Below, one piece after another: positions 22,769 through 43,788 of a stretch of 64,000 bases of DNA; position 1 is the first letter of the stretch; every line of letters begins with the position of its first letter. Position numbers and translations under genes: made by a program. Source of the stretch: Astrocystis sublimbata (Eukaryota; Ascomycota; Sordariomycetes; Xylariales; Xylariaceae); NCBI GenBank assembly GCA_022453515.1, contig JAJNNY010000041.1, positions 1-64,000 on the forward strand. The letters run 5' to 3'. The notes under the pieces were generated by a model. It had not been told where the DNA came from and did no database searches. It saw only the letters and a list, made by a program, of their open reading frames with translations.

Positions 22769-23646
22769 CTAAACACCGAAAACATATTCACACATGACTC
22801 CTTCTAGTAGCTCTTGGATCGGCAGCTTCAATTTTTCCGCCGGCGCGTCTAATGAATTCGACTTGGTTCGAGGAATAGCGCGAGTGTGTTCTTGGAATTT
22901 GAGCAGACAAAGTACCTTCTGCTCAAATTCACGGCATATGGCGTCGAGGTTCTTTCGATTTCCATCACGAACATCATGCGCACTCTCTAACCTGGAAAGG
23001 TCTCGTTGTAAGTTGTAGATTTTGTCAACAAATAACGCCAAAGCAAGCTGGACTGTGATAAGATTCGTCGTGTCCTCGCTCTCCAGCATCAAGTTCTTAT
23101 CGTCAATAACGGATGCGGCTATGTCGTCAAACTATTTATCACTCTAGAGTCAACAATTGCCTTTTATAGTAAAGAAATCGGTTCTAGAACATGGGTCTGC
23201 AGATGCCTCGGGGGCACAGTTACCTGTTAGGGTAATTCATGCCTCCAAGCCTTGCTAGAAGAGGGAATAAAAGACTCTAATGGACTGACCTCGTTGCTGT
23301 ACTGCTCGATGTCGCGGTGCATCGTGCTTAATACTTCATAATCGTCCATGCATAGCCGATAGTTCTTTGGTTGAAGCTTAGGCATGAAGGAAGCGTTGTT
23401 CCTCTTAGTACATTTCTTACAGGGCATATTGAGATTCCGTGAAAAGCTGTTCGGGAGCAAGATATTTTCCAATGCCTTGAAATGGTTGTCTGCAAAGGCG
23501 CCAAGCTCGTGATATGTGTCGAGAAAATACCAATGGACCACGAGGAGTATCAGACTTATACACACTTCATATACTAATGACCATGGGATAACCTTTTGCC
23601 AAACAATGCCTTTTTGATTGATGCTTTGACAAATAATTTTGGACAT
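22769..23646 (-). CDS. Orphan membrane-anchored, helix-rich protein
   Basis: ATG at 23646. Exon 1 is 23646-23290, the intron is 23132-23289, and exon 2 is 23131-22769 (phase 0), giving 239 residues. One hydrophobic segment around residues 23-46 (LVYEVCISLILLVVHWYFL) looks like a signal anchor or single membrane span. A CxxC pair (PCKKCTKRN) follows, and the C-terminal half is predicted helical with heptad-like spacing (KIYNLQRDLSRLESAHDV, then LDAICREFEQKVLCLL). I do not recognise the family. The intron belongs to the introner-like family described separately, which is the best reason to believe the splice. The gene sits in a gene-poor area and may be lineage-restricted. Confidence 0.6.
23132..23289 (-). 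mobile_element. Introner-like element copy A, intron of the orphan gene
   Basis: A 158-nt intron, GTCAGT to ATAG, homologous along its length to introns at 35936-36090 and 41700-41856. Shared blocks in order on the sense strand are TTATTCCCT..TTCTAGCAAG, GGAGGCATGAATTACCCTAA, GGTAACTGTGCCCCCGAG and GGCAATTGTTGACTC near the branch site. The arms 23250-23238 and 23219-23205 can pair into a hairpin. Confidence 0.85.
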
Positions 23647-25112
23647 TGCTTTAACGGCATCGAGTTGGCTTATAGGTTGTTGTTGTAGTTGATTATCTAT
23701 TGCTTTGCTTGTCCTGTCTTTGCCATTGTATCATTGTATCAATAATATTACCATTCAGGAGTATCAGTGGTACCGCTTAGTCTGCGCCGATGGCCGATGA
23801 AGAAGGCTGAAAATACTTGATTCTTTCAATTCACACGCCAATTGTCATGCAACCTGTCCAGTTGGCTGGCTTCACCAAAGAAATTCCATGGATGCGGGTG
23901 TCGCAGGGCTGGTGTAAGCCAACATATCACTTCCTCAGGCAAAAAGAATACTGTTCATGCCTAAGACTTGGACGAGAAGCAGGGCAGATCTCATGCACCA
24001 AAAAGACCACCCTCATTATGTCGTGGCCGCCTCTATACGTTTATAATCTGGCATTCGTGTACTTGTAGTGTGATTGGCATGAAGCTTGTATGCAATGCAA
24101 TGATAGCTTGTCAAAGATTTTGCTAACCGTAGAGTTCAGCTGAAAAATAAAATAAAAATTGCATGTCACTTAATGATACTACCCATTTTCATCCCTTGCA
24201 TTATCTATCGTGGAATGGAGCCAGTGCTGCATTGTATGCCTTTATTCTCACGTCGAAGAAGCGAGGCAAATGGAGTTGCCCGACTTGCAGTATAGACTCG
24301 AACGAGATCAAGAACATCACAAGCACTACTCAACGCACGCAGACCAGGTTCGGGTTCGGGGGCAGGATGCGAACTGTGTAAGCTTCATTCGGGATAACCA
24401 CCGAGAACAGGCCGTGATGCCAAGACTCTAGTCTTTTAGTGATACTGTTCGTCTCCTGTAGCAAGACCGTTCGGGCGACACACACGTTGGCAGATGGCAA
24501 CAAAACCGTTTCAGAAAATTTAAGTTTGTTCAAACGAAGTGCCTCATAGGGAAGTCCAATTTCGCCACGACAGCGTGGGATTTTGCGACGTTAGCCCTTC
24601 TGTTGCGATTGTTTCCCGTTTCAAATACATTTCGCCGGGGCCAAGACGGATGTTTCATACAGGGAAGAAAAAAACTGGCTGGCAGCGATTCTCACCGATG
24701 ATCCCAGCCACTCATGTCACCAAGCCTTTCCTGCCCTCCATCAAAAGAAGCCTGGGGATTATCCGGGATGAGTCCCGGCGCTCAGGATCTACCCGGGCAA
24801 GCAGCCGGGCTAAAACGCACGTCTGGAAGACCCTGCAGCAATCAAGCAAATGTTCGAAGGCGATTCTTTGTTACTTGGACAGACATATGTGCCTCTTCTT
24901 TCGCAGGGACCGTCTAAACCGCCGTACAAGCGAGCGAGGATGACGGTGGCCCAGACAGCCAAGAACGCGGTCTTCGTAAGCCGTAACCATCAGTGAAATG
25001 CCAAGAAGTCTCGCAAATTGCTACGACAATCGACGAGTGGCGCGTACGAGTACAACGCCCGCCGCCTCTTGTCCGTTCGAGCGTTTCGCCGACCATATCG
25101 CCTTGTCTTGGT

Positions 25113-25134
25113 TGTATGTATGTATGTATGTATG
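25113..25134. repeat. GTAT microsatellite
   Basis: About five and a half perfect tandem copies of the tetranucleotide GTAT. A similar GTAG tract lies about 190 bases downstream, at 25303-25322. Confidence 0.85.
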
Positions 25135-28100
25135 CCTGCTTACTGCGATGTTTAAAACGCGTACGTGCTGAGAGTCACAAGCATTGGCTGATCTGCGCCA
25201 AGCCATGGCACAACCTCTTCGCACTCGTTCGCGATCCCAGGCTGGGCAAACTGGGCTCGGCTCGGAGAGCGGTGGACGTTGCGCTTCATCTGGAAGGTAA
25301 GTAAGTAGGTAGGTAGGTAGGTACTTGCGTAGATGGAAACGTAGGATGTAATTTACAACGAGCAGCGTACGGAAAAGGAGGCAATCAAAACAATCAAGTC
25401 CTTGTCCGTCACTTCTCCCCAGATCACACACTTACTTCTTTCTGCCTTCCATATGTCCTGCTGCATATGGCACCTGGTGTAGCGTGTTGCGAATGATCTG
25501 TACTTGCCTGCCGAGGTGGATAGCTGTCCAATCCATGCAGGCAAATGCCGATCGCCCAATAATGGCGACCCATTAATTGACAAATGGAGGTTACGGTAGC
25601 ATCTCACGTAGGCACGCATATGTACAATTTTGCGTCGTGTCTATCCATCTGCGGTCGGTCTGCGTACTACGTCTATCTCGGGTGGTTGAAGCACCAGCCA
25701 AGAAATCGCTTCCGAACCAGAAAGCCAAATCATGATAACCGTAGAGCGGTGTGCTATTATTACACCTGGATTGCTTGCCTCACTTCCTAGGAAAGCCATG
25801 TGCTGCAGTACAGACACTACCCAGCTCGCCAGGTACGTGTAATTGGCAACGATGATTAGGCCTATAGCACGTAGATGTTATGGCCAGATTTCCAGGGAGC
25901 GTCCCATAAAAGACGCTTCCGACCCCGGGCAGCTGGGTGAATCCCTCGAGTATCCCTCGATAGCAGTATTGAAACTCGAATTGCACAATACATAATATCA
26001 TGTGCTAACACGGGATAACAAGGAACGCACAGCAACCTAGCATACGGGATTCGTGTCCCGTAGCTAGCCAGGTGGGTGCGTGCGTACCAAGACTGAGGTA
26101 ATTCAGTGAACTGATCCTGATGCCCATATTAACGCACCCCAAAAAGAAGGGTCTCGAGAAACAGCGGCCAGAAGGGTAGGGGAAAAAAGCCTCAAGACCC
26201 TTTCTTCTTAGGCTCCCTGCTCCCAATGCCCAATTAATGAATGCATTGGTGCGGCATATGTGTGGGTGGAGAGTGAGAAGGTGAAAGCTCGGCCTCCCCC
26301 AATCAGAAAACCCTCAATTAATCGTTTGCGTGTTCCATTTTTTTCCCTCCCTACTCCAGAACCCTTGCGCGAATAAGCCTTTTGCATCTCTCAGGGGAGT
26401 AAAATCCCGCCCCCGCGTAGAGATACCCCGAAGCTAAGCAATACGTCGCAGCTGCTATAACCGACCCCGGAGCAAAACCGGTCGGGTTCTGGTCGGCAAG
26501 GGGGGCCGCCGCGAATCCAACCAGCGCACGAGTCGTGCCCGCACCGCGCTGCGACCACTCCCGTCCCGTCCAGCAAACGCAGAACTGTCGCAGGGACGGG
26601 TCTGGAAGGGCTGAATTCGAACAGTGCCCCTGCCGATCGTCGGGAGGCGAGGACGGTGCCAGCCGTTGCGAATGCCGAAGACTACTTACCAAGAACCGCT
26701 CAGGCATTGCACATGTGGTGGAATCGAACGCTGATGCTGCTGTATTACCCTTTGGCGCCTATCTCTGTAAACATAGCCTGATCGACAATTGATCATTTCG
26801 CAGAGTGGGCGTTCTATATGACCGCTTGTGATGCCCACAGCACGGCTGCGATCCCTACTGTGTCTGTTCCTATCGCGCAGAAACTCGACGTGGTCATATC
26901 GCAAAGTGCTTGGATGCTCTCGGCGCGTGTACTATGTATGCCAAGTCGTCTTCAAATCAGCCGGTCAAACTCACAGGCTCCATTGCCACCAGGCGAGCCA
27001 GGCCCCCAGGAGCCCGTTGGCATTTGATGATCTACGTAGAAATGAAGAAGTGCTTGGCGGGAGATCATATATGGATGTATTAGGAGACGATGCCACATCA
27101 ATTATTAGTAACTGACAGGCGATGTGCAGCGGCTGGTCAGAAAGCATTGGTAGCCCCATTTGGATGGCCTACTTGCACACGTAGCTACACGATACCTTAG
27201 GCTTGTCATGTCGCCTGGGCTCATGCACAAACAGATATGACAAGACGTTACGTTACGCATACAGGTAAATTGAGGCATGACAGATTATCGTCTCTCTTGG
27301 CGTGACGACTCTCGATATCGCCCCAATGTTTCATGTCAGGGCTGTTCGACACTTCAGCATACGCGGCTCTTTGACCTTAGAGGTAAGGGCCGAGAGGCCG
27401 TAGCTGTTGATATCTGCTGCTGAACCAATATGGGACTACCTTCTCGAGCTCTCCCCAGCTCCCCTACGCCCTAACAGAAAACAACTCTGGGGTAAGAAAC
27501 GAATGCGGCGACGGTGACAGTTGATGGTCCACTCAGTCTTTGTTAGTAGGTAAGGTAGCCTGGCGGAGCTGGGAGCTGGCATGTCTGGGTTCGTGGTGTG
27601 ACTGTTCTGGTACTGAGGATCATACGAAAGAAGACTAAAGGAGATAGCGATTCAAAAACTAAAGCCTGATGATTGCCTGACAATGATGTACTTACTGAGG
27701 CAGATTTAGATGCAGAACCGAACTAATGAGGATCGTGGTTCCTACCACCTATGTATAGATGGGATACCATGAGATGACAGTGCCAATCCCGCCCACGAAG
27801 CGTATCCGCTGATACAGTAGCTATGTACTAGCAATGTACACCAACGCAGGCTAGATATTCTTGGCGTGACTTCAGCCAAGAGGCCAAATCTTGAAAGGGC
27901 GGATTTCCGAATGGGGAATGGGGATGCGTTGTTGATCCATGTCTACCCGCGCGTTGATGCTAGGGAAAGAGGCGAAGATCGGAACTGCAAGCCTCAATCG
28001 GCCGGCCTAAGTAATGTGTGTTAATTATAACAAAACAACGGACTCGGCGTATTCATTCAACTACCCGTCGAGCCCGTGTAGAGGGCGCCGTAACTAAGAC

Positions 28101-31100
28101 GGAAATCTATCTTGGCAATCGCATACTCCGGACAGACTCTTGTGTTCAATGGCAAGGATCATATAGACCCAAGCAGACAAGCTTTGCCAACGGGGTAGGC
28201 CCTTGTCATGTTACTCCAGTGGTAAGTGCGCAGGTAAGTGCGCGCGTCGTTGTACAGCTTTTATTTTGTGACAATGAGCCTCTGTTCCATTGGGCGGTGG
28301 CATTGAAGCCCGGTTATGCGACCCTTGGAATTCTAGAAGTTGTTAGTCAGGAACACGCTTGGGCTAAATCGTCGGGTTGACTAGCTTGGAGCCGATTTGT
28401 CGCATTGGCTCCAGGCTAAGTTTATAGGCGAAACCAGCTGTTGATGATTCGTACTTTACTTGGACGGTGCTTCTATCTTGTACATACGGCGCGGTGACGG
28501 CGAACTCGGCAACGATTGAGCGATGCTAGGCCGCCATCAACCGACCGAACCAAAGTTCCATATTCCATAGGATAATGTACTCAGTAGTCTGGTTCCCAAG
28601 TCCGTTCTTGCTGACTCGCGCCCCCCCACGGAGGAGTGGATAGATATCTGGCTCGGCTGGGATGCGTGTTGAAAGCGTGGACAACGGGCGGGTCGGCGTT
28701 GAGTACTCAATGACTACTCATTCGCCGAGAGACCTCTACTCGTACCGTAGGCGCATACAGTGAGAGAGATATGCTGGTACTATGTGATCACGAACGCTGC
28801 CACCAAACGAATGGACTTTGGCCTTATCTTCAGCCGTTTCAAGCTTCGACAACTATGTTTTGAGTTCGCTTACGTGCACTCGGGTTCGCGTGGGTTCGCT
28901 AGGGATCAAGTTTCATCTTGCGTGACCGTGCGTGACCTGCATCCTTGCCAACCGAGCAAGCAACCAACCGGTAGTTGATCAGATTTGTGTGTCCTGCATA
29001 TGAAGGCACGTGAGTCGAGACCGATCGACTTCTGTAGCATTGATATGCGGAAACACTGAACATGGGACGAGTCTCGCTTTGCCATAGCGAGGTAGGGACC
29101 GGATCGCTACGATATGTCAATTTGAGGTATATTTCGTCATATGGCCTGACGGTTGTTGGGGGATTCATCCTGCGCAAAAGGTGTCGTCGCCAGTGTCGCG
29201 TACGCCATACCATAATTTCCAGTCACCAAAGTCGCGGCAGGGAATGATGGTGCGAGTCGCCTTCCCGGAAATGCGAGAAACGCCGTGGGCATCACGAGCC
29301 AACTTGCCAACTGCAGCGGACCGAGATAATACATAGGGCCCAGTATAGACGCGCTTGTGACAGTAAAATTTGAAGATGGGTAATCTGCAAGATAGACAAG
29401 AGCCAAATGTCCGAATAAGAACCCATTGGCCAGTGGCAGGACTCGGCGTAGGGTGCTCGCAAGATAGTTGTAACGACTGTTGGTTAGCTTCTTTCCAAGG
29501 CCCCGTACTCCAGGACAGGAAAGCGGGTTGTCTCATCAGTCATCGAAGGTAAGTAACACAGGCGACAGGCAAATCTACCTAGGCGGAGGAGAGGAGAGGA
29601 GAGATAGCTAGCTAGCACTGTGTCTGGAATATAGCAGGCCAAGGTACTACGGGAGCATCTCCCAGCGGGCCAGTCTCGCCAGTCATTGGGCCAACGGGCT
29701 CTTCACTGACGAGACTGGCGGGACTGGCTCGACTGGGCTCGACTGGGGCCAGGTGCATCCCACCTGGGCAGCGAGCCAGCACTGTCCGAACTCCCCCAGT
29801 GCTGTCCCCGGTAATAACGCAATCACACTAGCCGACGCTACGAGCTGAACCCTTGCATGACGAATCCCAATCTGGCTATTGTTTTCCCGATGTGCTGGTG
29901 TGATTGGCCTGGAAGCAGATGAGCTATGGGGGATTTCGGCAGCATGGGGATCCCACGAGGAGTGGGCTACTGCAGTTTCTATTGCCTGTAATGCGACATT
30001 GTGTGCGTTGTTGCCACACCGTGTCTTGAAATCGTGCGCACGAGCAGCGGCAGGAGGAAGATGAGGCGGTTGAACTACCAGCTGAAGATGCTGGATGCTG
30101 GATGCTGGATGCTTCAGCGCTACGAGCGAGTCAAGCCGGAACATGAAGATCTACCGCTCCGCAACCCAACTAAATCTTCCCCCTGGGGTTCAATCAAACA
30201 CACTTGGTGGACACGGGACTTCTATGTTCATGTATGTATGAGCAGTACTCGGCCTGATTTGTCAATGGCAACGCGAAGGCAAGAGGGCAAGATTTGGGAG
30301 TGTGTGTCGGCCGAGTCGCGCGATAGCAGCCATGGCCGATCGCCCTAACACCCCGTCGTGGCAAACTTCTCACTGGTCTGTCTATGTTGAAGCGGGAGTC
30401 AAGACGGTGCCGCTTGAAACCGTATCACGGAAAATTGTCGTGGTGTATGGGCATCGCAATCCAGGAGCTAGAAAGAATTGCCGCAAGGCGCGAAGCTCTA
30501 CGAGTACATAGTACTACTATTATGTACGTCTGTACACCGAAAGGGTGGTGGGGCAACGGCCATACCGAGCGAATCCTCTGCTCTGTAGGAAACGGACAGT
30601 CGAAACAGATGGGCGAGACGCTATTCAAGTGTCTGTCTGTCTGTCCGTCGGTGAGCCCTAGCCTGATAGCACGTAGCGTGATGTTCGGGACACGATGGCA
30701 TTTCGGCAACATGTCTCCGCCCGGCGGCTGACAGAAAGGCGCACCAAGGTCGCAATGACGTAGTTTGCCAGCCACAGCTGGACAAAGACGATAAACGAGC
30801 TGGGCCTCCTGGGGTCCCGACTGGAGCTCTTCTACCATTATGATTGCAATGGATTCAACAGCGGGCTCTCACTTTGGGGCCCCTTTCAAGCAGATATATC
30901 CACGCCTTGTACCGTTTCGAGACGCTATCTCCGTATCTGCAATGTTAGCTGTGGAATACGGACAATTACACTACCTCGATCTTCCCCACGGCGAGACGAA
31001 TCATGAGTAAGCAGGACATGTGGGAATAGCTGGGGGGAACTCATACTACCCCATCACCTAGACATGTACAAGCTCGTTCCTCTGTGGAGGTGACGATGTT

Positions 31101-31570
31101 TAATTTCACTGTCAAGTATGCTCATATACATGTAGTAGGAGTTCTTGTGGTAGTACGCATAGGTACATGGTAAGGTAATAGGAGGGACCGGGCGGCATGA
31201 AAAATAGCTCAAGAGGCATTGAACGGGGCACGGTTGTTTGCGGGAGTGAATCTCGAAGATTTGACGCTGCAGCCATGTTCATTTTCGAAATGCAGCACGC
31301 GCCACAGAGAAGGGCTCGTTACTATCTTAAGCGATGCAGTTAAGACAATGGTTGCATGTGTGGCGGTTTTGAGCGTTAAATTGCTCATAGGAACAGAATC
31401 ATAACATGAGAAGACCAGAAACAGTGCTAACACGGTGTGAGGTGCTGCTACACATACGAGTACTCTTACTCCGTACCTAACGTGTATGTACTTACGAGTA
31501 GACTAGGTTTCGTGAGTCGTACCTCTCTCCTCTTGTCTGTCTGCCGCGCCCAGAAGACAGGTCCGAGAGA

Positions 31571-31592
31571 CAGCAGCAGCAGCAGCAGCAGC
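31571..31592. repeat. CAG microsatellite
   Basis: About seven perfect CAG units in non-coding sequence. Confidence 0.85.
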
Positions 31593-33439
31593 ACCTGGCG
31601 AGTGGCTCGCCTGGCTCCTGCACCATCGTATTACCACAGTTGCTTCGCACTACTCGTCGGAGGTACACATACAACCATCTCTTATCAGGCGCTGCCCTGA
31701 AGCAAAGCCGAGTTTGACCCTCGAGCTAGCCATGTACCCATTAGTGGGTAGTGCACGGTACAAGTGCAGGAGGAGCGACAACCTGAGGTGGACGGGGGCG
31801 CGCCTGGCAGGTCTGGGGATCTTTTGTGAGAACTGGGGGTTGCAGCTACCTGAATTATAAACCTAGGAGTAGTGGTATTGCGATATGGCTGGGAAGAGAG
31901 ATGATGGCCCGTGCTGCCCGCCCGTGTGCCATGTGGGCTCCACTGGCAATGTTGCTTGGGACGGGGCAGCAGACGGGGCATGGGGGCATGAGCACAGGAG
32001 CCAATGTTTTGATCGGAAAATTCTGATCAAAACAATCTCCCACCTGATCCCATCCTGACGGCGCAAGCATGCAGACGACAATTTTACTGCCGTTTCTGCA
32101 GTTGGGTCGGGGAGCCATGAGATCATGTGCGGACAAGTCAATTGAGCAGAGAGTGCTTTGTTGCAGCTCCCGAAGGCGAGTGTTGTCGCAGCCGAGCAGA
32201 GCCAATGGACAATTCGGTAGTGTTCGAGGCATATTTGACATGCGTTGCGGTCTGTCGTCATGGCAAATGAGGGAAAAGTTGAGTGAGTGATTTACGAACA
32301 TGTACTAGTACCACCACCCACCATGGCGAAGTGGGGCGCAGGAGACCTGACGCTGTATTTGGACCTGCTGCTACAGTGCGTTGGCTCCAGACATTCAACT
32401 GTGCAGGAGAGGCTCAAGCTCTTATCAATGGGTTGGGATATTGAATTGGGAAACCTTGCGCTCTCGTTGCCCGCCCTCTGCCTCGGTGATCGCAGCATGT
32501 CTGCATACCGTATCGTATTCCGTATGCACATGCACCTACAGTAGGTACTATGCGTACACACAACATTAACATGAACACACACACATTTGAATCTAGTTGG
32601 GTTGATGGGATTGCATATATGAACTGATACACTGGGATTTGTTGACTGGGTCTCGTAATCAGCATCACAAGACTTGGAATATTGTACTTGATGATTCAAT
32701 CCCTCCCGTAAACGTTGGTACCTACCTCGCCTACCCAGTCCCTCAGTGAGTGAGTGAGTGCAGGTTTAACAGTTCTGAATGGGTGAACAGCCTATGTATC
32801 TAGACAACGTGCGAGTCAACCGCTGCATTCACGCTCCTAAGGAAGGGTTGTGCAAAAGCTTCCATTGAGTTAATAGCACAAGGTTACCTAAGGTAGGTAC
32901 CTAGGGTACCCAATGTAGATAGCTAAGGGAAGTGAAAGTGAACCTTGAATACGGTTGCTCTGTTTCTGCTCTGCCGAGCTCTGCTCCAGGGCAGGTACCT
33001 ACAATGACTAGCCTGCAACAGGCCAGACGAACTGGCTCCTTATTCATCGTGGCTCTGATAGGCCGCATGCGAGAACGGAGTGGTGGGCCCGCACTGTAGC
33101 GCGAGGTCGCGAGACACCGAGCGCGATGGCCCCGGCGGTCGTGGGCTAAGACCCAACGCGGCGAGTACATGGGCAGAAGATGGGCTAAGGCCAGGCTACC
33201 TGGGCGACCTGGGCCAACGGGGCCAACATGGTCTTGATGGCCCTCTTGGTCCTGAGCATGGTCAACCTGGCTAAGGTTGCTAACCCGCCCATCCTGGTCC
33301 ATCCTGGCTGACCCTTCCCTACCTACCCTGCCAACCTGCACCCGTTTGGGAGAAGAGCTTCTTCGGCGGACCCATCCCAGCATCTTGCTTGCCCTCCGTC
33401 CTTAGTCTCTTATCCTTTAAAAAACCGCGCTGCCCGTCG

Positions 33440-33868
33440 CAATTCACGATTTTGTTTTCTCTTTTTTCTCTTACCGCGTTGAGACTTGTTCATTCGGCTC
33501 GTCAACTAATCAATAGGCTCTCGACGCTGGTGCCTTCCACCATACGCTCCCTCTCCCCCCATCCCCCACCCTCTCTAATACGTTTTCTGTTGTTCTCATG
33601 TAGGTGCAAACTCTGTCACGATCATCCCCTCCAGGTGCCCTCGGCTGCGGCTTTTAAATGAGCTGTCTTGCCCCAACAGCTGCCATTCCAGCACTGCCTG
33701 TGAATTCCCCCCCACACCTGTTATTGTCTCACCCAGCTCAAGTGTCACCTTTCGCACCTCGCACCTCCAACCCTACAGATCGCATTCAGCATCCTAACAT
33801 CTACTTTCATAGTACAAATACTGGGTTAGCGAGTAGATCTCGGCTATATCCATAGTCCCCTCGCCAAA
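33440..33868 (+). promoter_or_regulatory. Pyrimidine-rich pma1 leader/promoter
   Basis: Strong C/T bias with CTCTTTTTTCTCTTACCG and CTCCCTCTCCCCCCATCC tracts ahead of the pma1 ATG at 33869. CT-rich leaders are common upstream of highly expressed filamentous-fungal genes. The transcription start cannot be placed from sequence alone. Confidence 0.35.
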
Positions 33869-36800
33869 ATGGCTGAGTCTAATACCGCCGCTGCGCCGGC
33901 ACTCAACACGAACATCGAGTCGGGTAACTTCGACGAGAAGACAGGTCACCACCACGCTCCCGCCGCCAATGCACCGGCCAAGAAGCCCAAGGCTGAGGAC
34001 GATGATGAGGATATTGAGGATATCGATGCTTTAATCGAGGACCTTGAGTCCGAAGATGGAGGTGATGATGAGGAAGAGGAAGAGGGCGAGACGGCTGGCC
34101 AGGGCCGTACGATACCGGAGGAGATGCTGAACACCGACACCCGTTCCGGTTTGACCGACTGTAAGTAACGGCATCAAACGCCTCAACGACAGTCACTCGA
34201 CCCGACTAGCCGAAGTGACAATAGACGCTGGTAACGCAGCATCTCATTAGGCCTCCGACTAACATTGTCACAGCCCAGGTCACTGAGCGTCGTCGCAAGT
34301 ATGGTCTTAACCAAATGAAGGAGGAGAAAGAGAACCTGCTTCTCAAATTCTTCGTATGTTTGACCAATTGGCTACCCGGGACCCAACTAAATCTAACAAG
34401 GGTATGACAGGGTTTCTTCGTCGGTCCCATCCAATTCGTCATGGAGGCTGCTGCCGTCCTTGCCGCTGGTCTAGAGGATTGGGTCGATTTCGGTGTCATT
34501 ATCGGTTTGCTGCTCCTCAACGCCGCTGTTGGTTTCATTCAAGAATACCAAGCTGGTTCGATCGTCGATGAGCTGAAGAAGACTCTCGCTCTCAAGGCCG
34601 TCGTCCTACGTAACGGCAACCTGCAAGAGATTGAGGCTCCTGAAGTCGTCCCCGGTGATATCCTCCAGATCGAGGAGGGTACCATCATTCCCGCCGACGG
34701 TCGCATTGTAACTGAGGATGCTTTCCTCCAAGTTGACCAGTCTGCTCTTACCGGTGAATCCCTCGCTGTCGACAAGCACAAGAACGACAACTGCTTTGCT
34801 TCTTCTGCCGTCAAGCGTGGTGAGGCTTTCATGGTCATCACCGCCACTGGTGACAACACATTCGTCGGTCGAGCTGCTGCCCTAGTCAGCCAGGCTTCCG
34901 GCGGCAGTGGTCACTTCACTGAGGTGCTCAACGGTATCGGTACGATTCTGCTCGTCCTTGTCATCGCCACTCTCCTGGTTGTCTGGGTTTCATCTTTCTA
35001 TCGCTCCAACCCTATCGTCGAGATTTTGTCTTTCACTCTGGCCATCACCATTGTTGGTGTCCCCGTTGGTCTCCCCGCCGTCGTCACGACCACTATGGCT
35101 GTTGGTGCTGCCTACCTCGCCAAGAAGAAGGCCATTGTTCAGAAGCTGTCTGCTATTGAGTCTCTTGCTGGTGTCGAGATTCTGTGCTCCGACAAGACCG
35201 GTACACTGACCAAGAACAAGCTGTCGCTTGCTGAACCCTTCACTGTTGCTGGCGTTGAGCCTGATGACCTCATGCTTACTGCTTGCCTGGCTGCTTCCCG
35301 CAAGAAGAAGGGTATTGATGCCATTGACAAGGCTTTCCTGAAGGCCCTCAAGTACTACCCCCGTGCCAAGAGTGTTCTCTCCCGCTACATTGTCCGCGAA
35401 TTCTTCCCCTTTGATCCTGTCTCAAAGAAGGTCACTGCTATCGTCGAGTCCCCCCAAGGCGAGGTCATCACCTGTGTCAAGGGTGCCCCTCTTTTCGTTC
35501 TCAAGACTGTCGCTGAGGACCATCCCGTCCCCGAGGAGATTGATCAGGCCTACAAGAACAAGGTTGCTGAATTCGCCACCCGTGGTTTCCGTTCTCTTGG
35601 TGTTGCCCGCAAGCGTGGTGAGGGTGCTTGGGAGATTCTTGGTATCATGCCTTGCTCGGACCCCCCTCGTCACGATACTGCTCGCACTATCAACGAAGCC
35701 AAGCGCATGGGTCTCTCCATTAAGATGCTTACTGGTGATGCTGTCGGTATTGCTCGTGAAACCTCTCGTCAACTCGGTCTCGGTACCAATGTCTACAACG
35801 CTGAGCGCTTGGGACTCGGTGGTGGTGGTGCTGGCGACATGCCCGGCTCTGAGGTCTACGATTTCGTCGAGGCTGCTGATGGTTTCGCTGAGGTCTTCCC
35901 GCAGCATAAATATAACGTAGTGGAGATCTTACAACGTACGTGTTTCCTGGCGTCTCTTATTCCCTTCTGGCAAGTCTCGGAGGCATAAATTACCCTAACC
36001 GGTATCTATGCTCCGAGATACCTGCGAGTCCCTTTTTCACGATGAATTTCGTTATTTTATGCGGCAATTACTGACTCGAACGTGCTATAGAACGTGGTTA
36101 TCTGGTCGGTATGACTGGTGACGGTGTCAACGATGCTCCCTCGCTCAAGAAGGCCGATACTGGTATTGCTGTTGAGGGTGCTTCCGATGCTGCTCGCTCC
36201 GCTGCCGATATCGTCTTCTTGGCCCCTGGTCTTGGTGCTATTATTGATGCCCTCAAGACTTCGCGTCAAATCTTCCATCGCATGTACGCTTACGTTGTCT
36301 ACCGTATCGCCCTCTCGCTCCACTTGGAGATCTTCCTCGGTCTGTGGATCGCCATCCTCAACCGCTCCCTTAACATCGAACTGGTCGTCTTCATTGCCAT
36401 CTTCGCCGATGTTGCTACCCTGGCCATTGCCTACGATAATGCTCCTTACTCCATGACTCCCGTCAAGTGGAACCTGCCCAAGCTCTGGGGTCTCTCTGTC
36501 GTTCTTGGAGTCATTCTTGCTGTAGGGACGTGGATAACGCTCTCGACTCTCCTCGTCGCGGGTGAGAACGGCGGTATTGTTCAGAATAACGGTAATCTGG
36601 ACGAAGTCTTGTTCCTTGAAATCTCGCTCACCGAGAACTGGCTCATCTTCATCACCCGTGCCAACGGCCCCTTCTGGTCCTCCCTCCCGTCATGGCAGCT
36701 TACTGGTGCTATTCTGGTCGTCGATATTCTCGCCACCTTCTTCTGTCTCTTCGGTTTCTTCATCGGCCCTTACACCCACATTGTCGCCGTTGTCCGTATT

Positions 36801-36983
36801 TGGATTTTCTCCTTCGGTGTCTTCAGCGTCATGGGTGGTGTCTACTACCTTCTTTCTGACAGCGCTGGCTTCGACAACCTCATGCACGGCAAGTCTCCCA
36901 AGGGCAGCCAAAAGCAGCGCTCTCTGGAGGATTTCGTCGTTTCCCTGCAGCGTGTGTCTACCCAGCACGAGAAGTCATCGTAA
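33869..36983 (+). CDS. pma1: Plasma-membrane H+-transporting P-type ATPase
   Basis: Exons 33869-34160, 34274-34353, 34411-35935 and 36091-36983 give 929 residues, the usual length. This P3A ATPase pumps protons out of the cell and energises nutrient uptake. Seen: an acidic cytosolic N-terminus ([22 protein letters not shown]), the TGES motif in [11 protein letters not shown], membrane segments around [15 protein letters not shown] and [20 protein letters not shown], the phosphorylation motif [11 protein letters not shown] with its aspartate near residue 385, the KGAP nucleotide-binding motif, MLTGDAV and the hinge [11 protein letters not shown]. The C-terminal tail ([18 protein letters not shown]) resembles the phosphorylation-regulated autoinhibitory tail of the family. 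The last intron, 35936-36090, interrupts ILQQRGYLVG just upstream of the hinge motif and is an introner-like element; splicing it keeps phase 1. Confidence 0.97.
35936..36090 (+). mobile_element. Introner-like element copy P, last intron of pma1
   Basis: A 155-nt GTACGT to CTATAG intron homologous to the introns at 23132-23289 and 41700-41856. The core GGAGGCATAAATTACCCTAA is followed by GGTATCTATGCTCCGAG. Arms 35975-35987 and 36007-36018 pair as a hairpin with one bulged base, and inner TACC/GGTA can extend it. The branch-site block GGCAATTACTGACTC lies 15 bases before the acceptor. Confidence 0.9.
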
Positions 36984-38227
36984 GCGGTCGACCCGTGACT
37001 CGGAGCGGCATTTCCCGCCATGTCGCGCCACTCGGCCCCCTTCTCTATTGCGTTATAAATACCTTTTGCGTTTCGGTGTGTAGATAGATCACCGTTCGGC
37101 TTGGGGGTCGAACAATCACTCATTATAATTTCATTTTTGTAAACTGAACGATGCGGCGGGCGGACTTCGGTCATATACCCTACCTATACGTCTTTTAGAC
37201 TTAATAAATAAGAAGAAAGTAAAAATTACTCTTATGCTTCTCGCCTTTTGTGAGTCGATTGTGACTGTTTCGACCTGATCTTATTTTCCATTTATTGTTG
37301 CTGTGACTTTGCCACCCTATTACATTACTGCCGCTATCTTAATTTTGCCTTTTGCCTCGTGAACAGGATTTGCACATGGCCAGTCATATGAAAAAGGTTG
37401 TCTCCATGTTGAACTTAGTTTCATGTGCTCACACAACATGCATGTTGTATCATAATCAGAAACTGAAGAATCACAATTAGGCAATGAGCTTGACTCTATT
37501 AACTTAAGTCTAAAGAATGTCTACTTAGAATGGCATAGCCGATGGACAAAGCCTCAAGGCAGCAGCACTCTATTAGCAATAAAGTAGTTAGGTAGTTATG
37601 TTAAACTTTGCGTTTCTCAAATTCTATGAGTGGCTAGCCAGGCAGGTAAAAGAGAACTGCTTTTGAATACGCTGACTGCATGGGGGTAGAAAGGGGGAAC
37701 TCGCCTCGAGAGCGGCTCCCGTACAACTACCATGCGGGAACAGGATTTAATGACTAATTATTCTAGGCGGGCGATTGTATGGAAGAAAAGCCGCTACCCT
37801 ACCTGGTAAGGTATAGGTACCTACCTACCTATGTATGAGAGAGCCAACTAACAGATGATCCAAGAGTGCTGTTAGGAATCGTACCCAACTCACCATTTGT
37901 GTGTGGCTCGTCTTATTGTATGTACACAACTTTGAAGGCAAGCTATAAGTGATATGTACCTAGGTACCTCGGAGCGTGGCGAGGATGCCAGGTGACTCAA
38001 ATCTGCCCGTCTAAGGTAGGCACACCTCAGCCCACACAAACAGTACCTTAGGTACCTATGTAGGTAAAGGTACCTAGATGCCTAGCTCCAGGAGCCAGAA
38101 TGCATTCCATATCATCCCACTTCACAACTCTGACCTTTTTCTCTCGGTACCTAATAAATCGTGAGGTGCATATATCACGATGGGCAGGCGTCGATTCTGA
38201 CTTGGAACTGACACTAGGTAGTCTAGA
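36984..38227. other. Intergenic region, pma1 3' side and DCAF4-like promoter
   Basis: Contains the pma1 3' UTR and several dense runs of the TAGGTACCTA-type motif (37800-37835, 37955-37973, 38043-38078). No gene is supported. Confidence 0.5.
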
Positions 38228-40417
38228 ATGGAGATTCCGGGGTACTATTACGGTTCGTCATCAACCAAGCCATCCATATCACTGTCGCATGCTCTGCAGT
38301 CCAAACACTAACAGCCCTCCCAAGACGCCGAAAGGAAACGCTATTTCAAGATCGAAAATAGCAAGACTGCACCCTCCAGCGCAGCATGGTCCTCTGGCAA
38401 TGTGAGAAGGCGAAAACTTGGCGACGAGGAGGCTGCATCTGCCCAGCGGCACTTGAACCTCGCCAAGAGCCGCATCAGCCGCTCGAAGCTGCTCTGCGAC
38501 CCTCCGACGGGCGGCTTCTTCGCCCGCGAGTATGGCGCCCACAAGCATGACATGCAAACTTCTTGCTTCGTTGACGGCTTGAGGAACAAGGGCCGTATAC
38601 CCATCTATCACGATCAGACATCGCAGGTCCAGCACATGTGTGTCGCCAGCTCTGATAACGAAACCGGGCTGTGTGTCCTGTATGCGGGTATGTTACCTCG
38701 ACGTCTCTCAGCGTCATGTCCCCGTCTGTTGCTGGTGTCCCTCGCCATACGCGTGTGCTGAGGGCGTGTGTGCTGAGGCATGACTTGCAGTAACTGTCGA
38801 CAACAGTGTCATGTACTCGACCTATCTTGCTCGAGACAAAAATAAGCGGTATGTTTGTTAGCCAAACTCCCAGGCCCACTGCAACTCGATCAATGACCGC
38901 TTGTATACCACTCAGTTCTTTTGAAGTACATTGGCTGACACTGACATCGTTACCTTGTATCCTGATACAGCATTGGCCAGCACCTCTTAGCCAACTACCA
39001 CTTACCACCATTCTTCCCACCCCCACCCCACGAGGACACAAGAATACCACAAGTCTCCGATATCCAGTACGACGCCGACCGTGAGGCTCTACTGGTCACA
39101 TCACGGAAGTCCGGGTACAATTATTCTAGCTCTCTAAAGGTCATATACCCTTATATCAGCAAGCTACATGATCGCGACGACCCTTTGTTCCCGCGTTGGG
39201 AACTGCCAACTGGTGTGCCTATTCTTTCCGATACAGTTTCTGTCTTCCTACATGCTGCCCCTCTTGTTTATTGTATGGGCCGAGCTGCTATTCCAGCGTT
39301 ATACTCTGCTGCCCGAGTATTAACTTCCTCACGCGAGTACTAAGACCCAATGCTTACCATATCTTTAGACGATGAATGGTATGTTCCAATAGAGGGGATG
39401 GGCCGACGTGACGAGGCGCACTGCGTTACACCTGCCCCGAAATCTTCATCACTTCAATGCCTCGTTGGCACGAACAAGGGAATTGTCCAAGGATATCAAC
39501 CCTCAGGCGGACCGGGCCGGCTAAGCGAGACGAGCTGGCTGACGCCGCCTAACCTTACCCACCCCCACGCAAAGCTACAGTATCCGCTCGAGTTATTCCG
39601 CGATATCTTTACCATCGGTTTTCATCCGAGTCAGACAGATGTCTTCAGGTTCGGCGGACGGCCAGGAGCACTGTTCACAGCTGATAAGCGTGTACCACAC
39701 GCATCGTGGTCGCATATCAGGCTCTCATCCTCCATTACACATCTACGATGTTTGGAAGGCGGAAATCAAGTCCTCGCCTCTGGGTTACAGAATCAGCTCG
39801 GAGTCTACGACCTTCGGTTCGTCCGATCTCATCGCGGCGCCGAGGGCGACAGTAGCGGTAGAGTAGATACACAACATACTGGAGACGGAGAGAAGCGGGG
39901 CACATATTCTCACAGAACGTCTTATGGACCCCAACTTGATGAACCTCAACGCCGCAATAGCAATTGGAACGGACGAGAAGGACGGGGTAGTAAGTACAGG
40001 GGAAAACGCGGCAACGACTCTCGTCCCAACAGTGCCGTGGCCCAGCCCGTCATCCATTTCGAACAATACCGGAACGCGGCCCATATCGATATTGGCTTCG
40101 CCTACGACGCAGAGACAGGAGTGGTGGCAGCCGCCCACGACACACCAGGCACAGTTGCGCTGTACTCGGTGCGTACGGGCTCGCGGCTGCGGGTCATCGA
40201 CTTCGCGACGGAGGGGAAGAGGCCACCCAAGGGTGAGCGTAATCGCCCACAACCTCTTCTTGCCCCGGAACAGCAGGATGACCTGCCGGTTATACAAAGC
40301 CTACAGTTCCATACCTTTCCAGGGGACCATACCCCCACACTATTCATCGGCAGTGATAAGCGGGGCGGTATCACTGCGTTTACGTTCGGCGTAGACGGAT
40401 TTGAGGACGAGGGGTAA
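38228..40417 (+). CDS. WD40 protein, DCAF4-like
   Basis: Five exons: 38228-38252, 38325-38687, 38791-38848, 38971-39272 and 39369-40417, giving 598 residues with consistent phases. The short first exon fuses to give MEIPGYYYDAERKRYFKI, the N-terminal signature of DCAF4-type proteins (PG-Y-YD-E-x-x-RYF). DCAF4 proteins are WD40 substrate receptors of CUL4-DDB1 ubiquitin ligases. The WD-type segments are divergent: LCVLYAGVTVDN, SVFLHAAPLVYYDDEW, LQCLVGTNKG, HLRCLEGGNQVLASGLQNQLGVYDLR, VVAAAHDTPGTVALYSVRTGSRLRVI and LFIGSDKRGGITAFT. A basic low-complexity loop (about 39840-40030) splits the propeller. The first intron uses an AAG acceptor and the fourth a GTATGG donor; these two junctions are the least certain. 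Confidence 0.75.
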
Positions 40418-40420
40418 CAG

Positions 40421-40451
40421 GAGAGGGAGAGGGAGAGGGAGAGGGAGAAGG
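40421..40451. repeat. GAGAGG hexanucleotide repeat
   Basis: About five tandem copies of GAGAGG, ending imperfectly, beginning four bases after the DCAF4-like stop codon, so in its 3' UTR. Confidence 0.9.
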
Positions 40452-41370
40452 AGGCACGTCAGTTCGCGAAAAATGGGAGGGGAAAAAGATACGAACTCTA
40501 CCTTTTGGGTCGGGAACATTGAGGGCCTGCCTGCATCCAGCGATTGTGGGTAATATAATATTGATCCTGATACGTACAAGCAAGTAAACCTCATCGATGA
40601 TGCCTATCTAGCCTACTTTACTCATTAATGCTGTCTAAATCCCGATATCCACAATTGATATTGCTTTTCCATAATGGCTATGTCCACCTCTAACTCCAAC
40701 CTTGATGCCCCATGTTCACATATCCTAGGATCTGCACAAGCAAACCTAGCCTCAACCGCGCGTGGGAGGGAAGTGGGAGGATGACATCCTTAGCTACATA
40801 ATCAGAAGGCGACCAGACCATGAACGCCGTACTGACTATCGAACGAAAAAAAGAAACAGTGGGCGACAAGCAGTGTATAGCAATCATTCGGCACCTGTTT
40901 TACAGTTCATCTTAAATACCCGCCCGCCTTGAATGTATAACGGCACTGAATGGGCCTGTCTGCCAATGATGATGATGCATTCATACTACGTCCGCATACA
41001 CATGCGGCGACCCAGCCACCCATACGTGATACGGCATCAGGATGTTGTGCTTCGCAGAAAATCGAAACAGGTTATACACCATGAAGTGATTTGATACAAT
41101 TATATTTGTACAAGTTTCTATCATTCTAGATTTGTAAGCTATTGAAAGCGTGATGGATCTGTCGAGGTAAAAAAACCACCTACTGATTCCCTCTAAGATA
41201 CGTACTCTAGCGACACTACGAACAATTCTCTATAGCGTGTGTCTGTCTCATGCTCGTGAAATCGTTTTCACACACCCGTTATATAGTCTCAGATGTCAGT
41301 AAGATATCCATCAACCCATCTACCCAACAACAGCAGTAAAGCAATAAAACAATAACAAAACATTCTCAAA
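40452..41370. other. Intergenic region between convergent genes
   Basis: About 0.9 kb separating the DCAF4-like gene (+) and the bZIP gene (-). AT-rich toward the bZIP 3' end. No gene or repeat beyond the GAGAGG tract. Confidence 0.55.
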
Positions 41371-43788
41371 TCAACTCGACAGGTCACCTTCGCTCTGAAG
41401 CTTATACGTGCCCCTCAGGGCAGGAACCGCCTGATAGAACGCATCGCCGAGGGTCCAGTTCTCTGCCTTGCGGATATGTTCCTCGAAGACGGGGTTCATA
41501 ACGATCTCGCTCTCGCCGTCGCGATCGACGCGGGTCTCAATCAGCGCGTTCTTGACGTCATATGGCCAGTTGACGCGTATCGTCTGCGTGTAAGGGAGGA
41601 AGAAGTTGTCGAACTCGTATCCGGGCGAGTGATAGTGGCATACTAACTTCCTCCGCATCTCAGGAAAGGGGAAGTAGTCGACCCATACGGGATGAGGGAC
41701 TGCAACCGCTGGGGTCAGTAGTTGCCCTTTATAGCAAAATAATTGCTCATGGAACAGTGGTTTGTAGGTGTTTCGGGAGCATAGATACCTATTAGGGCAA
41801 TTTATGTTCCCGAGACATGCTAGAAGGGGCAATAATTGACTCCAGGGGTTGCGTACTGTTGTACTGCTCCTCTACCGGCCTCGAGTACGGAGGCAGCAGT
41901 TCGAAGTTCTCGGGTGTGGGGTCGAGAACCCACCGCACTGAATAATTCTATGTGAGCACTCGTATATCCTTGGATGAGCTCTTTTACATGGCCCTTGAGG
42001 TTCTGCAATAGGACCCTTATCGGGACAGGCTATCGTGCTCTTCATGGTGGGGAAACAGAACGGAATTGAACAGTACTCACTGACACGGACCATAACGTAG
42101 TACACCGCCGCCTTCTCTGGCATTACGCAGAGCCCGGAAAGCTTCGACATGATATCTAGGAAAACCTGGGATACTGGATGGGGACGCTACTGGTTCCTGG
42201 CGTCCACCAACGCAGTTAAACAGGGGTATAGGGGTCCCACTACTTCACTCACTGGCCTCCCTTCAGCTAAAAGTTGGCGACGTTCACGCATGAAGTGGTC
42301 GAGGATACGACCAACTGGATCTTGTGGTGAGATATGCTTCAGGGGTGAGTTGAAAACTCCTTTTAGTGTTTGAATAGGAGCAGAGTATCCCGATGGCTGA
42401 TCCACGTTTCGGCCTCGCTCTACCGGGGGCGCGATTGACGAGGTTCTGCTAGTCGCTAGGGGTGTCCGATCCGTTTTCGTGGGCAGGAGCTGATCAGCTG
42501 GCGAAATCTGGTTTCCGTTTGGTCTAGCTTGCTCATAGTTGGATTGTTGCGAAGGGCCCGGCGAGAAGACTATCTTTGGGAGGTGCTCGCCACCAATGAT
42601 TTGAGATCGGTAATTGCCTTGTTGCTGATCCGAGTTCTGACTTTGGAGGGAGATCGAGATGGAAGGGAGCAGTGCTGGGCTAGACCAGGATGAAGCTTCA
42701 ACAAACTGTGATGTATGTTCACCACTGCGTATTGGGCCACTGTTTGTAGGCTGTTGTTTCTGTTGAGTGGATTGAACAGTGTCATAGGCCGAGACTGGAG
42801 AGGCAGCATCACCTTCAGCTGCCAAAATCTAAGGTTAGCATTTTGAAAAGCTATGATTGAACAAGCCTGATTCGTATCCTCGTGTGTTCTCGCACCGACG
42901 TACCTGGGCCACCGGACAGGAAGGGCTGGATTCCCGCCACAATGGTCGCTAGGTGGGTTCTGAGGGCGGCATTGTTGGCTTCGACGGCCTCTTTCTGACG
43001 AAGTACTTCTTGCAACTCTTGGTAAGGCTTCTGCGCTTTTAGTTCGCGTATTTGAGCCTCAAGAGTCTCGATCTGATTCTTGGTCCGTTCGCGTATAGCT
43101 CGCTGCGCTTCTCGATCTACGCTGACATAGTCAGACACGCGCGTTTTTCCACAAAGCGTATTGGGTGAAAGCGTATCCCACCGCGTGATTCCTTGCGAGT
43201 CATCATCCATAGCAGCACACTGTTACATATCAGGAGCATCGATCGAAAAGTACAACAAAATTAACACGATGGGGATCACTTGTGCTTCAGGAAAGCGATG
43301 AGGTGGATCAAGGAGGCCTGAGACCTACCATTAGCTCGTTTTTTGATCAGTTGCTCGGGGGTCAGGTTAGCTACACCCCTATGACTGGGCCCAATACGCC
43401 GTTTTTTAGTGCGCTGGTCCTGGAGAATAGCAGAGGTAATGTCTGAGCCCCTGTCCGAGCCATTTTGTACAGATCCGGGAGAGTCTGGGGATTGGCCATC
43501 GAGGGACGGGGATGGGCAATGTTCTTGTTGACTCGGGCCGTGAGGTGTGTGCCCAGCTCCGACTTCAGCGGTACCGGTGGCGGAGCGGACGGTGCCAGTA
43601 CCGCGAATGGCAGCTTCTGTACCTGTGACAACAGATGCCCCTTGACGGCTGCCGAGCCCGGGCTGTGTGGAGGCGGCAGAGGCAGGGGCGGGTCTATTGG
43701 CAGAGGTAGAGGCAGGGACAAAAGCAGAAGCAGAAGCTGAAATAGAAGCAGAGGATGAAGATGGGGAGTTGGAGTTGGAGGGAAGCAT
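41371..43788 (-). CDS. bZIP transcription factor with DUF3425 domain; in-frame TAG
   Basis: Exons 43788-43329, 43116-42896, 42828-42081, 41937-41857 and 41699-41371. Exon 1 ends in LTPEQLIKKRAN and exon 2 begins DREAQRAIRERTK, restoring the basic region of this fungal bZIP class. A leucine-zipper-like helix follows (IETLEAQIRELKAQKPYQ), then a Gln/Ser/Pro-rich linker. The C-terminal DUF3425 domain includes LPEK-like MPEKAAVYYVMVRVMRW, DPTPENFELLPPYSRP, IPHPVWVDYFPFPEMRRKL and NWPYDVKNALIE. Such factors are nuclear DNA-binding regulators, often of stress or secondary metabolism, but the target is unknown. Exon 3 carries a TAG at 42187-42189 between DARNQ and RPHPVSQVFLDIM. Both sides are family-like, so this is a nonsense mutation, a base error or readthrough. 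The last intron is an introner-like element. Confidence 0.85.
41700..41856 (-). mobile_element. Introner-like element copy B, last intron of the bZIP gene
   Basis: A 157-nt GTACGC to TTGCAG intron homologous to those at 23132-23289 and 35936-36090. Sense-strand blocks are TTATTGCCCCTTCTAGCATG, GGGAACATAAATTGCCCTAA, GGTATCTATGCTCCCGA and GGGCAACTACTGACC. Hairpin arms are 41815-41803 and 41783-41771. Here the stem reads TCGGGA with TCCCGA, a compensated change relative to the pma1 copy (CTCGGA with TCCGAG). Confidence 0.9.

What the first reader, a model, noticed from the sequence alone, without database searches (positions are those of the whole stretch)
23132..41856. Introner-like element family: three homologous introns in three unrelated genes
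Introns 23132-23289 (orphan protein), 35936-36090 (pma1) and 41700-41856 (bZIP) align along nearly their full length, by eye at roughly two thirds identity, though the flanking exons encode unrelated proteins. Lengths are 158, 155 and 157 nt, while most other introns I modelled are about 50-120 nt. Shared blocks in the same order are TTATTCCCT/TTCT.GCA, CATAAATTACCCTAA, GGTATCTATGC and GGCAATTACTGAC. Each begins and ends exactly at splice sites. Introner-like elements are known from some fungi (Dothideomycetes) and algae. Three in 64 kb implies an active or recently active family here, and the consensus may be new.
Basis: partly seen in the sequence, partly recalled or inferred. Interest (0 to 1): 0.92.

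Follow-up and report, generated by a model that had tools for sequence, protein, structure and literature searches.

The report
Self-multiplying introns in a Xylariaceae fungus
Three unrelated genes in this stretch of a fungal genome carry copies of one and the same intron, part of a family of well over a hundred copies that was still multiplying recently and sits cleanly inside genes, a fresh case for asking how new introns arise.

Summary
The three introns have the stated coordinates and lengths (158, 155, 157 nt), are 68-70% identical (shuffled maximum 57%) and sit in unrelated exons. The genome holds many more: the conserved 3' end matches 194 places, the reversed control 1. Of 150 loci aligned, 130 score well and 120 have GT..AG at the projected ends. 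The host is, by protein match and contig length, Astrocystis sublimbata (Xylariaceae, Sordariomycetes), not a Dothideomycete. Copies form four groups (A-D; C is a grade). Two loci with unrelated flanks carry a 100% identical 157-nt intron, so copying was recent. The introns are TIR-like hairpins (CTGGAGTC...GACTCCAG); frames, and in four genes protein homologues, fit exact GT..AG removal. New here: exon edges are strongly biased and differ by group (A: T at +1, 51/55; D: GT, 12/13; B: AG before the donor, 20/25), unlike the unbiased sites reported for Xylariales stwintrons and the lack of TIRs reported for ascomycete introners. A new variant of a known kind. Splicing, orthologous empty sites and the copying mechanism are not shown.

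The parts
23132..23289 (-). Introner copy I1, group B (GTCAGT...AAATAG), 158 nt; exon ends AG before the donor
   Evidence: DNA search with it returns copies genome-wide
35936..36090 (+). Introner copy I2, group C (GTACGT...CTATAG), 155 nt, in the plasma-membrane H+-ATPase gene
   Evidence: the split codon falls on residue 624 of Neurospora crassa PMA1 and the next exon starts at 625
41700..41856 (-). Introner copy I3, group A (GTACGC...TTGCAG|T), 157 nt, in a DUF3425 (bZIP-type) gene
   Evidence: exons contiguous on PF11905
23263..23280 (-). 5' arm of the inverted repeat of I1
23144..23161 (+). 3' arm of the inverted repeat of I1 (reads as the same motif on the other strand)
35947..35964 (+). 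5' arm of the inverted repeat of I2
36063..36080 (-). 3' arm of the inverted repeat of I2
41828..41845 (-). 5' arm of the inverted repeat of I3
41709..41726 (+). 3' arm of the inverted repeat of I3
34408..35935 (+). Open frame of the H+-ATPase gene upstream of I2 (true exon start not determined)
36091..36983 (+). Exon of the H+-ATPase gene downstream of I2
41374..41699 (-). Open frame downstream of I3 (DUF3425 profile positions 32-125)
41857..41947 (-). Open frame upstream of I3 (DUF3425 profile positions 3-29; true 5' limit not determined)
   Evidence: L009:1665-1754:-
23290..23730 (-). Open frame upstream of I1 (orphan protein; limits not determined)
22769..23131 (-). Open frame downstream of I1, joined in frame when I1 is removed (801 nt open against 450 and 396 for the two shifted joins)
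   Evidence: (L039)

Best explanation
What is shown: the three introns belong to one introner family in Astrocystis sublimbata, with 194 matches to its 3' end in the genome. The repeated unit is the intron itself, GT to AG, mostly 150-165 nt, with TIR-like ends that fold into a hairpin. In most loci tested it sits in the sense direction in coding sequence and its exact removal keeps the frame. What is inferred: a spliced-out intron, kept intact by its hairpin, is the mobile form. It is put back as a whole at a new exonic site through RNA (reverse splicing, or capture of the intron RNA at a DNA break followed by copying into DNA). The short exonic edges that differ between groups (A: before T; D: before GT; B: after AG; C: before A or T) mark 1-2 nt of site choice or microhomology at the join. 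Old copies lose the hairpin, some shrink by internal deletion to 59-78 nt, and they become ordinary introns. I hold the family identity at about 0.97; the RNA route is the weaker half and sets the confidence given here.
For: Copies: 194 against 1 in the control; 69 against 0. Recent copying: 157/157 identity of L010 and L011 with 32%/27% flank identity; 12 of 120 copies lie in pairs of at least 95%. Unit equals intron: 120 of 130 well-scoring copies have GT..AG at the projected ends. Frame: the exact join gives the longest open frame of three in 41 of 51 loci (17 expected by chance) and in 9 of 13 group D loci. Homologue coordinates are contiguous across I2 (C), I3 (A), L002 (C) and L056 (B). 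Sense: median spliced open length 657 nt against 207 nt antisense. No TSD in groups A and C. Hairpin: dinucleotide-shuffle z of -6.6 for a young A copy and -2.75 for a young B copy; copies closer to their group consensus fold better (rho -0.50, n=120). Empty site in paralogues: 12 of 12 other stretches that span the I2 codon run through it.
Against: The exonic edges are far from random and group-specific, which plain break capture does not predict. TIR-like ends, and in B and D edges that equal a 2-nt duplication of a splice dinucleotide, are what DNA transposition with splice-site co-option would give. No RNA intermediate or splicing was observed. In 10 of 51 loci the exact join is not the longest, and in 6 of 51 the antisense frame is longer than the spliced sense frame. 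Only 82 of 120 copies fold with z below -2, and the hairpin-age correlation would also arise if any structured source sequence decays. Covariation is mixed: 44 doubly changed cells against 27.5 shuffled, but pair types no higher than shuffled (53 against 52.7), and relatedness can inflate the first.
Confidence: 0.5

Rival explanations
1. A non-autonomous DNA transposon (MITE-like introner). The inverted repeats are bound by a transposase encoded elsewhere, and each group has its own 0-2 bp target rule. In B the AG of a 2-bp target duplication serves as acceptor; in D the GT of a duplication serves as donor.
For: Inverted repeats at both ends of all three window copies and in all four group consensuses; group-specific, nearly invariant exon edges: D GT 12/13 (background GT 5%), B AG 20/25 (background AG 6%), A T 51/55 (background T 23%); precise ends; most non-ascomycete introners show such signs (Gozashti 2022, section read).
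Against: No target duplication of any tested form in A or C, which make up 82 of 120 copies. Most loci tested lie in sense in long open frames (44 of 51 at least 300 nt), although copies were found by sequence alone and a DNA element should also sit between genes; gene annotation was not available, so intergenic copies were not ruled out. No second arm lies in the 5.7 kb upstream of the one solitary 3' end that I followed (L185). No autonomous partner was seen, but no genome-wide search for one was made.
Confidence: 0.33
2. The exon edges are a by-product of selection on splicing, not of insertion: B needs AG before its weak GTCAGT donor to pair with U1, and other groups similarly keep only copies in sites that splice exactly. 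(This can hold together with either copying route.)
For: Fits B well: 22 of 25 copies have donor GTCAGT and 20 of 25 AG in front. U1 pairing is recalled knowledge.
Against: Does not readily explain T at +1 in A (51/55) or GT after TAG in D (12/13), where the donors are mostly GTATGC (34 of 55) and GTATGT (13 of 13).
Confidence: 0.15
3. Members of the [D1,2] sister-stwintron family of Xylariales (Fekete et al. 2021, 2025), or cropped descendants of it.
For: Same order; the same kind of near-terminal inverted repeat bringing the terminal Gs together; seamless insertion (papers read in part).
Against: A [D1,2] stwintron must begin G|GT; the base before GT is G in 38 of 120 copies (A 11/55, B 21/25, C 6/27, D 0/13). 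Removing exactly GT..AG, not one base more, keeps the frame in 41 of 51 and 9 of 13 loci. The published 5' NTIRE-10 (0 of 120 within 1 mismatch), its 3' partners (3 and 2 of 120) and the 10-nt palindrome (2 of 120) are absent or nearly so.
Confidence: 0.05
4. Old shared introns or gene duplication: the three genes inherited the intron from a common ancestor or from segmental duplication.
For: None beyond the sequence likeness.
Against: Flanking exons are no more alike than shuffled sequence. An identical intron occurs at two loci with unrelated flanks. Paralogues of the I2 host lack the intron.
Confidence: 0.01

Closest known systems
Introner-like elements (ILEs) of Dothideomycetes (van der Burgt 2012, recalled; Collemare 2015, PMC4457414, first of four parts read)
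   Same: Near-identical introns in unrelated genes, several families per genome, hundreds of copies, some families young and some decayed, decay into ordinary introns
   Different: Other class (Sordariomycetes). I had no ILE sequences to compare. Inverted-repeat hairpins and biased exon edges are not in the part that I read
[quoted passage not shown] 2025 PMC12403724; parts read)
   Same: Xylariales; terminal symmetry, stronger in young copies; no TSD (ours: none in A and C); seamless insertion in coding sequence
   Different: Ours is a single canonical intron of about 157 nt without the G|GT start, without the NTIRE-10 and palindrome sequences; 194 pattern matches in one genome; exon edges strongly biased where they report no bias
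DNA-transposon introners with splice-site co-option (Huff 2016, recalled; Gozashti 2022 PMC9860276, section 8 and passages read)
   Same: TIR-like ends; in B and D one splice dinucleotide is repeated at the far junction as co-option predicts
   Different: No TSD in A and C, at most 2 nt in B and D. Gozashti et al. [quoted passage not shown]

Membership tests
Introner / introner-like element | Many introns similar over their full length in unrelated genes of one genome | tested here: met
   194 pattern matches against 1 control; 130 of 150 aligned loci score at least 100; unrelated flanks
Introner / introner-like element | Copy ends coincide with splice sites | tested here: met
   GT..AG at projected ends in 120 of 130; 3 more end AG one base later; 7 do not
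Introner / introner-like element | Spliced in vivo | not testable with these tools
   no RNA data; frame and homologue evidence only
Introner / introner-like element | Recent gain: absent from orthologous sites in relatives | not testable with these tools
   no fungal relatives held; paralogues lack the I2 site, 12 of 12 spanning stretches
[D1,2] sister stwintron | Starts G|GT, internal intron splits the external donor | tested here: not met
   G before GT in 38 of 120; exact GT..AG removal keeps the frame in 41 of 51 and 9 of 13 loci
[D1,2] sister stwintron | NTIRE-10 elements or TTTCTAGAAA palindrome | tested here: not met
   0 exact in 120; at most 3 of 120 within one mismatch for any of the four motifs
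[D1,2] sister stwintron | Near-terminal inverted repeat bringing the terminal Gs together | tested here: met
   predicted folds only; a resemblance in working, not in sequence
DNA-transposon (MITE) introner | Terminal inverted repeats | tested here: met
   imperfect and slightly inside the ends
DNA-transposon (MITE) introner | Target-site duplication | tested here: inconclusive
   none in A (55) and C (27); B AG 20/25 and D GT 12/13 could be 2-nt duplications or site preference
DNA-transposon (MITE) introner | Related transposase or autonomous copy | not tested
   only one solitary 3' end was followed, 5.7 kb upstream, no partner arm

The most novel reading that the evidence does not exclude
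Each group of this hairpin intron family has its own 1-2 nt insertion rule at one side of the join (A before T, D before GT, C before A/T, B after AG), carried by its terminal dozen bases. Ascomycete introners would then not land at random breaks but be placed by a sequence-reading machine. Either this is a DNA transposition system with 0-2 nt duplication and splice-site co-option, which would remove the ascomycete exception, or it is an RNA element with targeted reverse splicing.
Probability: 0.4. Interest if true: 0.78.

Novelty: new variant of a known kind. Interest (0 to 1): 0.62.

Why it matters
How spliceosomal introns are gained is an open question, and ascomycete introners are described as the exception without TIRs or duplications. 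This family is large, includes copies identical at unrelated loci, has inverted-repeat hairpins, and shows biased exon edges that differ between sister groups. It therefore offers a direct test of RNA against DNA routes: empty sites in sister strains would show base by base what each insertion adds.

Tried and rejected
Longer target duplications: an all-offset scan (2,601 combinations per group) gave no coherent signal beyond the junction dinucleotides; the top hits lie inside the element ends or are scattered with z up to about 3.6. A 2-nt GT duplication for group A was considered because its right edge reads ..GCAGT. It would remove one base too many on splicing, and the I3 exons are exactly contiguous on DUF3425, so I dropped it. 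The L013 host looks like an ABC ATPase whose split codon encodes the switch histidine; that residue is recalled, and only the left exon matched. Helitron-like A|T insertion was considered: the ends do not fit what I recall of Helitrons, and A precedes the donor in only 27 of 55 A copies. Stwintron structure: rejected. Rfam: no family at gathering score in 20000-45000. Viral and prokaryote collections: one exact 20-mer in a viral contig, inside a 1026-aa reading frame and without the rest of the element around it, so chance; none for the central block; none in prokaryote genomes. Junctions that did not help: Arginase (L030) profile ranges overlap, and L031, L036, L045, L004, L065, L054, L007, L049, L040 and L010 gave one-sided or loose profile matches. 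A paralogue search with an L002 exon found only two distant stretches and says nothing about the site. The covariance model R1 was built but could not be used on the genome. The glutamate synthase protein search did not name the organism.
Full report
CHECK. The alignment holds the quoted blocks in order. One motif for the inverted ends, CTGGAGTCWNTWATTSCC, finds both ends of all three introns and nothing else in the window (6 matches; 0 of 100 shuffles reach 6).

ORGANISM. The window is contig C126 (332,434 bp) of a 42.6 Mb assembly. A protein translated from 39344-40417 has a 98% match named as Astrocystis sublimbata, on a contig of the same length, 332,434; Xylaria proteins follow at 65% and below. 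So the host is a Xylariaceae species. This is an inference from one protein and the contig length.

COPY NUMBER. DNA searches with each of the three introns returned 40-41 matches with only 40 candidates scored, many running nearly end to end and others covering part of the query. The 3' motif GGCAATTAYTGACTCCAGCG with up to 3 mismatches has 97 forward and 97 reverse matches, control 1 and 0. These 194 include a few duplicate contigs and partial copies, and miss more diverged ones. The central block has 33+36 matches, control 0. I fetched 168 loci. Merging by flank sequence left 150. Of the 18 set aside, 13 are, by their coordinates, the same place found twice or duplicate/palindromic contig copies. 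The other 5 (L077, L133, L137, L150, L160) are distinct neighbours wrongly merged; all five score 116-242 with GT..AG but are not in the counts below. Of the 150, 130 score at least 100, and 120 of those show GT..AG at the projected ends. Of the other 10, three (L050, L053, L106) end AG one base later; seven (L005, L020, L022, L046, L119, L139, L149) lack one dinucleotide there. The 20 low scorers include chance matches and what look like deletion derivatives: L079 (59 nt), L134 (63), L110 (76, 5' arm gone) and L100 (78). Group counts below use the 120.

GROUPS. A FastTree tree of the 120 gives B (25, support 0.95) and D (13, support 0.98) as clades. A is 55 of a 56-leaf clade with support 0.73. 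C (27) is a grade beside A. I1 is B, I2 is C, I3 is A. Median length is 157 nt, range 119-173, with 104 of 120 at 150-165. L010 and L011 (C102 and C104) are identical over 157 nt while their 60-nt flanks match at 32% and 27%. 12 of 120 copies lie in pairs of at least 95%; the best pair is 100% in A, 98.7% in B, 96.8% in D and 85.4% in C, so C looks oldest.

IN GENES, IN FRAME. For 51 of 57 loci with long flanks (6 dropped for unclear ends), removing exactly GT..AG gives the longest open frame of the three possible joins in 41, where 17 would be expected by chance; in 10 it does not. 44 have at least 300 nt open across the join, median 657 against 207 on the antisense strand; frame phases of the 41 are 14/19/8 for 0/1/2. 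In 6 of 51 (L006, L008, L014, L034, L044, L056) the antisense frame is longer; L056 is nevertheless sense by homology. For group D the exact join is longest in 9 of 13, with the antisense frame longer in 2. Homologues fix the join to the residue in four cases. For I2 the split codon C|AA (Gln) falls on Gln 624 of N. crassa PMA1 and the next exon starts at 625. The I3 exons match DUF3425 positions 3-29 (residue 29 of 30) and 32 onwards (residue 1), with one split codon between. L002 exons match AA_permease_2 up to 241 (residue 192 of 193) and from 246 (residue 3), again leaving one split codon. L056 exons align to 3uog up to residue 164 (query 144 of 146) and from 167 (query 1), in phase 0. Other junctions were inconclusive and are listed under Tried and rejected. 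One gene that looks P450-like to me (not tested) carries an A and a C copy 64 nt apart. Within this genome, 12 of 12 other stretches that span the I2 codon (29-62% identical or so, by homology P-type ATPases) run through it without a break, their lengths fitting to within two residues, so that intron is not general to the family.

EDGES. Group-specific bases lie outside the intron: A has T at +1 in 51/55 and A at -1 in 27/55; D has GT at +1,+2 in 12/13; B has AG at -2,-1 in 20/25 and G at +1 in 13/25; C has A or T at +1 in 25/27. Background in the flanks: T 23%, GT 5%, AG 6%. In B and D the edge equals what a 2-nt duplication with splice-site co-option would leave, but also what simple insertion after AG or before GT would leave; these cannot be told apart without empty sites. 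In A and C no duplication fits. For I2 the edge base is part of the codon for the Gln that N. crassa PMA1 also has, so there it looks like host sequence rather than carried by the element.

STRUCTURE. Each group consensus folds with an outer stem CTGGAGTC/GACTCCAG. A slice over a young A copy (two bases off the intron ends) has z -6.6 and a young B copy z -2.75 against dinucleotide shuffles. With mononucleotide shuffles the median z is -3.9, -2.2, -1.6 and -2.5 for A-D, and z is below -2 in 49/55, 15/25, 10/27 and 8/13. Copies nearer their consensus fold better (rho -0.50, n=120; significant within A and B, not within C and D). Pair counting on 32 copies (A2, some rows a base off the ends) gives 86.3% paired cells against 83.9% shuffled, covariation score 0.178 against 0.148 and 44 doubly changed cells against 27.5, with slid controls at 35-43% paired; but doubly changed pairs (14 against 10.7; 46/500 shuffles) and pair types (53 against 52.7; 270/500) are not convincing. 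The hairpin is a property of young copies; selection on pairing is suggested, not shown.

LITERATURE. Fekete 2021 (PMC8469720: outline, two of three parts of the results and one of two parts of the figure legends read) and Fekete 2025 (PMC12403724: text parts 1, 3, 4 of 6, the discussion, and passages read) describe proliferating stwintrons in Xylariales with inverted ends, no TSD and no exon bias; the word Astrocystis does not occur in the 2025 main text. [quoted passage not shown] Collemare 2015 (PMC4457414): first of four parts read. My searches for introners with fungi, Sordariomycetes, Xylariales or this species (listings seen, those of 58 and 90 in part) showed no report of this family. 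Subscription papers, preprints and supplements were not searched.

VERDICT. The finding is real, and it is an introner family as proposed. It is a new variant of a known kind, with inverted-repeat hairpins and group-specific exon edges as the parts that do not fit the published picture of ascomycete introners. The route of copying is open: I lean to an RNA route at about one half, DNA transposition at about one third. The rival odds overlap because the splicing-selection account of the edges can hold together with either route.

Noticed in passing
window 1-2658: The contig start is a near-perfect inverted repeat (arms 1-337/2322-2658 at 100% and 338-1259/1401-2322 at 99%) around an AT-rich centre; possibly a fold-back assembly artefact (centre printed).
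   Followed up: partly
L037, L038 (C11); L047, L048 (C107, C95); L134, L135 (C77, C80); L158, L159 (C39, C146): The same flanks occur on two contigs, or twice in inverse order on one, so the assembly holds palindromic or duplicate small contigs; raw pattern counts are inflated by a few.
   Followed up: partly
L186:866-1023 and 1088-1226: Two introners of different groups (A and C) lie 64 nt apart in one gene that looks P450-like.
   Followed up: partly
L079, L100, L110, L134: Short versions of 59-78 nt keep the 3' end and, except L110, part of the 5' arm, and still look like introns; a possible path from introner to ordinary short intron.
   Followed up: no
C126:167304 and 167706; C67:431518 and 431896; C108:12265 and 12714; C122:102487 and 103248; C128:272354 and 273016: Five further pairs of copies within 0.8 kb of each other; whether they share a gene was not tested.
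   Followed up: no
elements, central block CCCTAAYAGGTATCTATGC: The hairpin loop is among the well conserved parts and contains CTAAYAG|GTATCT, which resembles an acceptor directly followed by a donor; not needed for the frame, function unknown.
   Followed up: no
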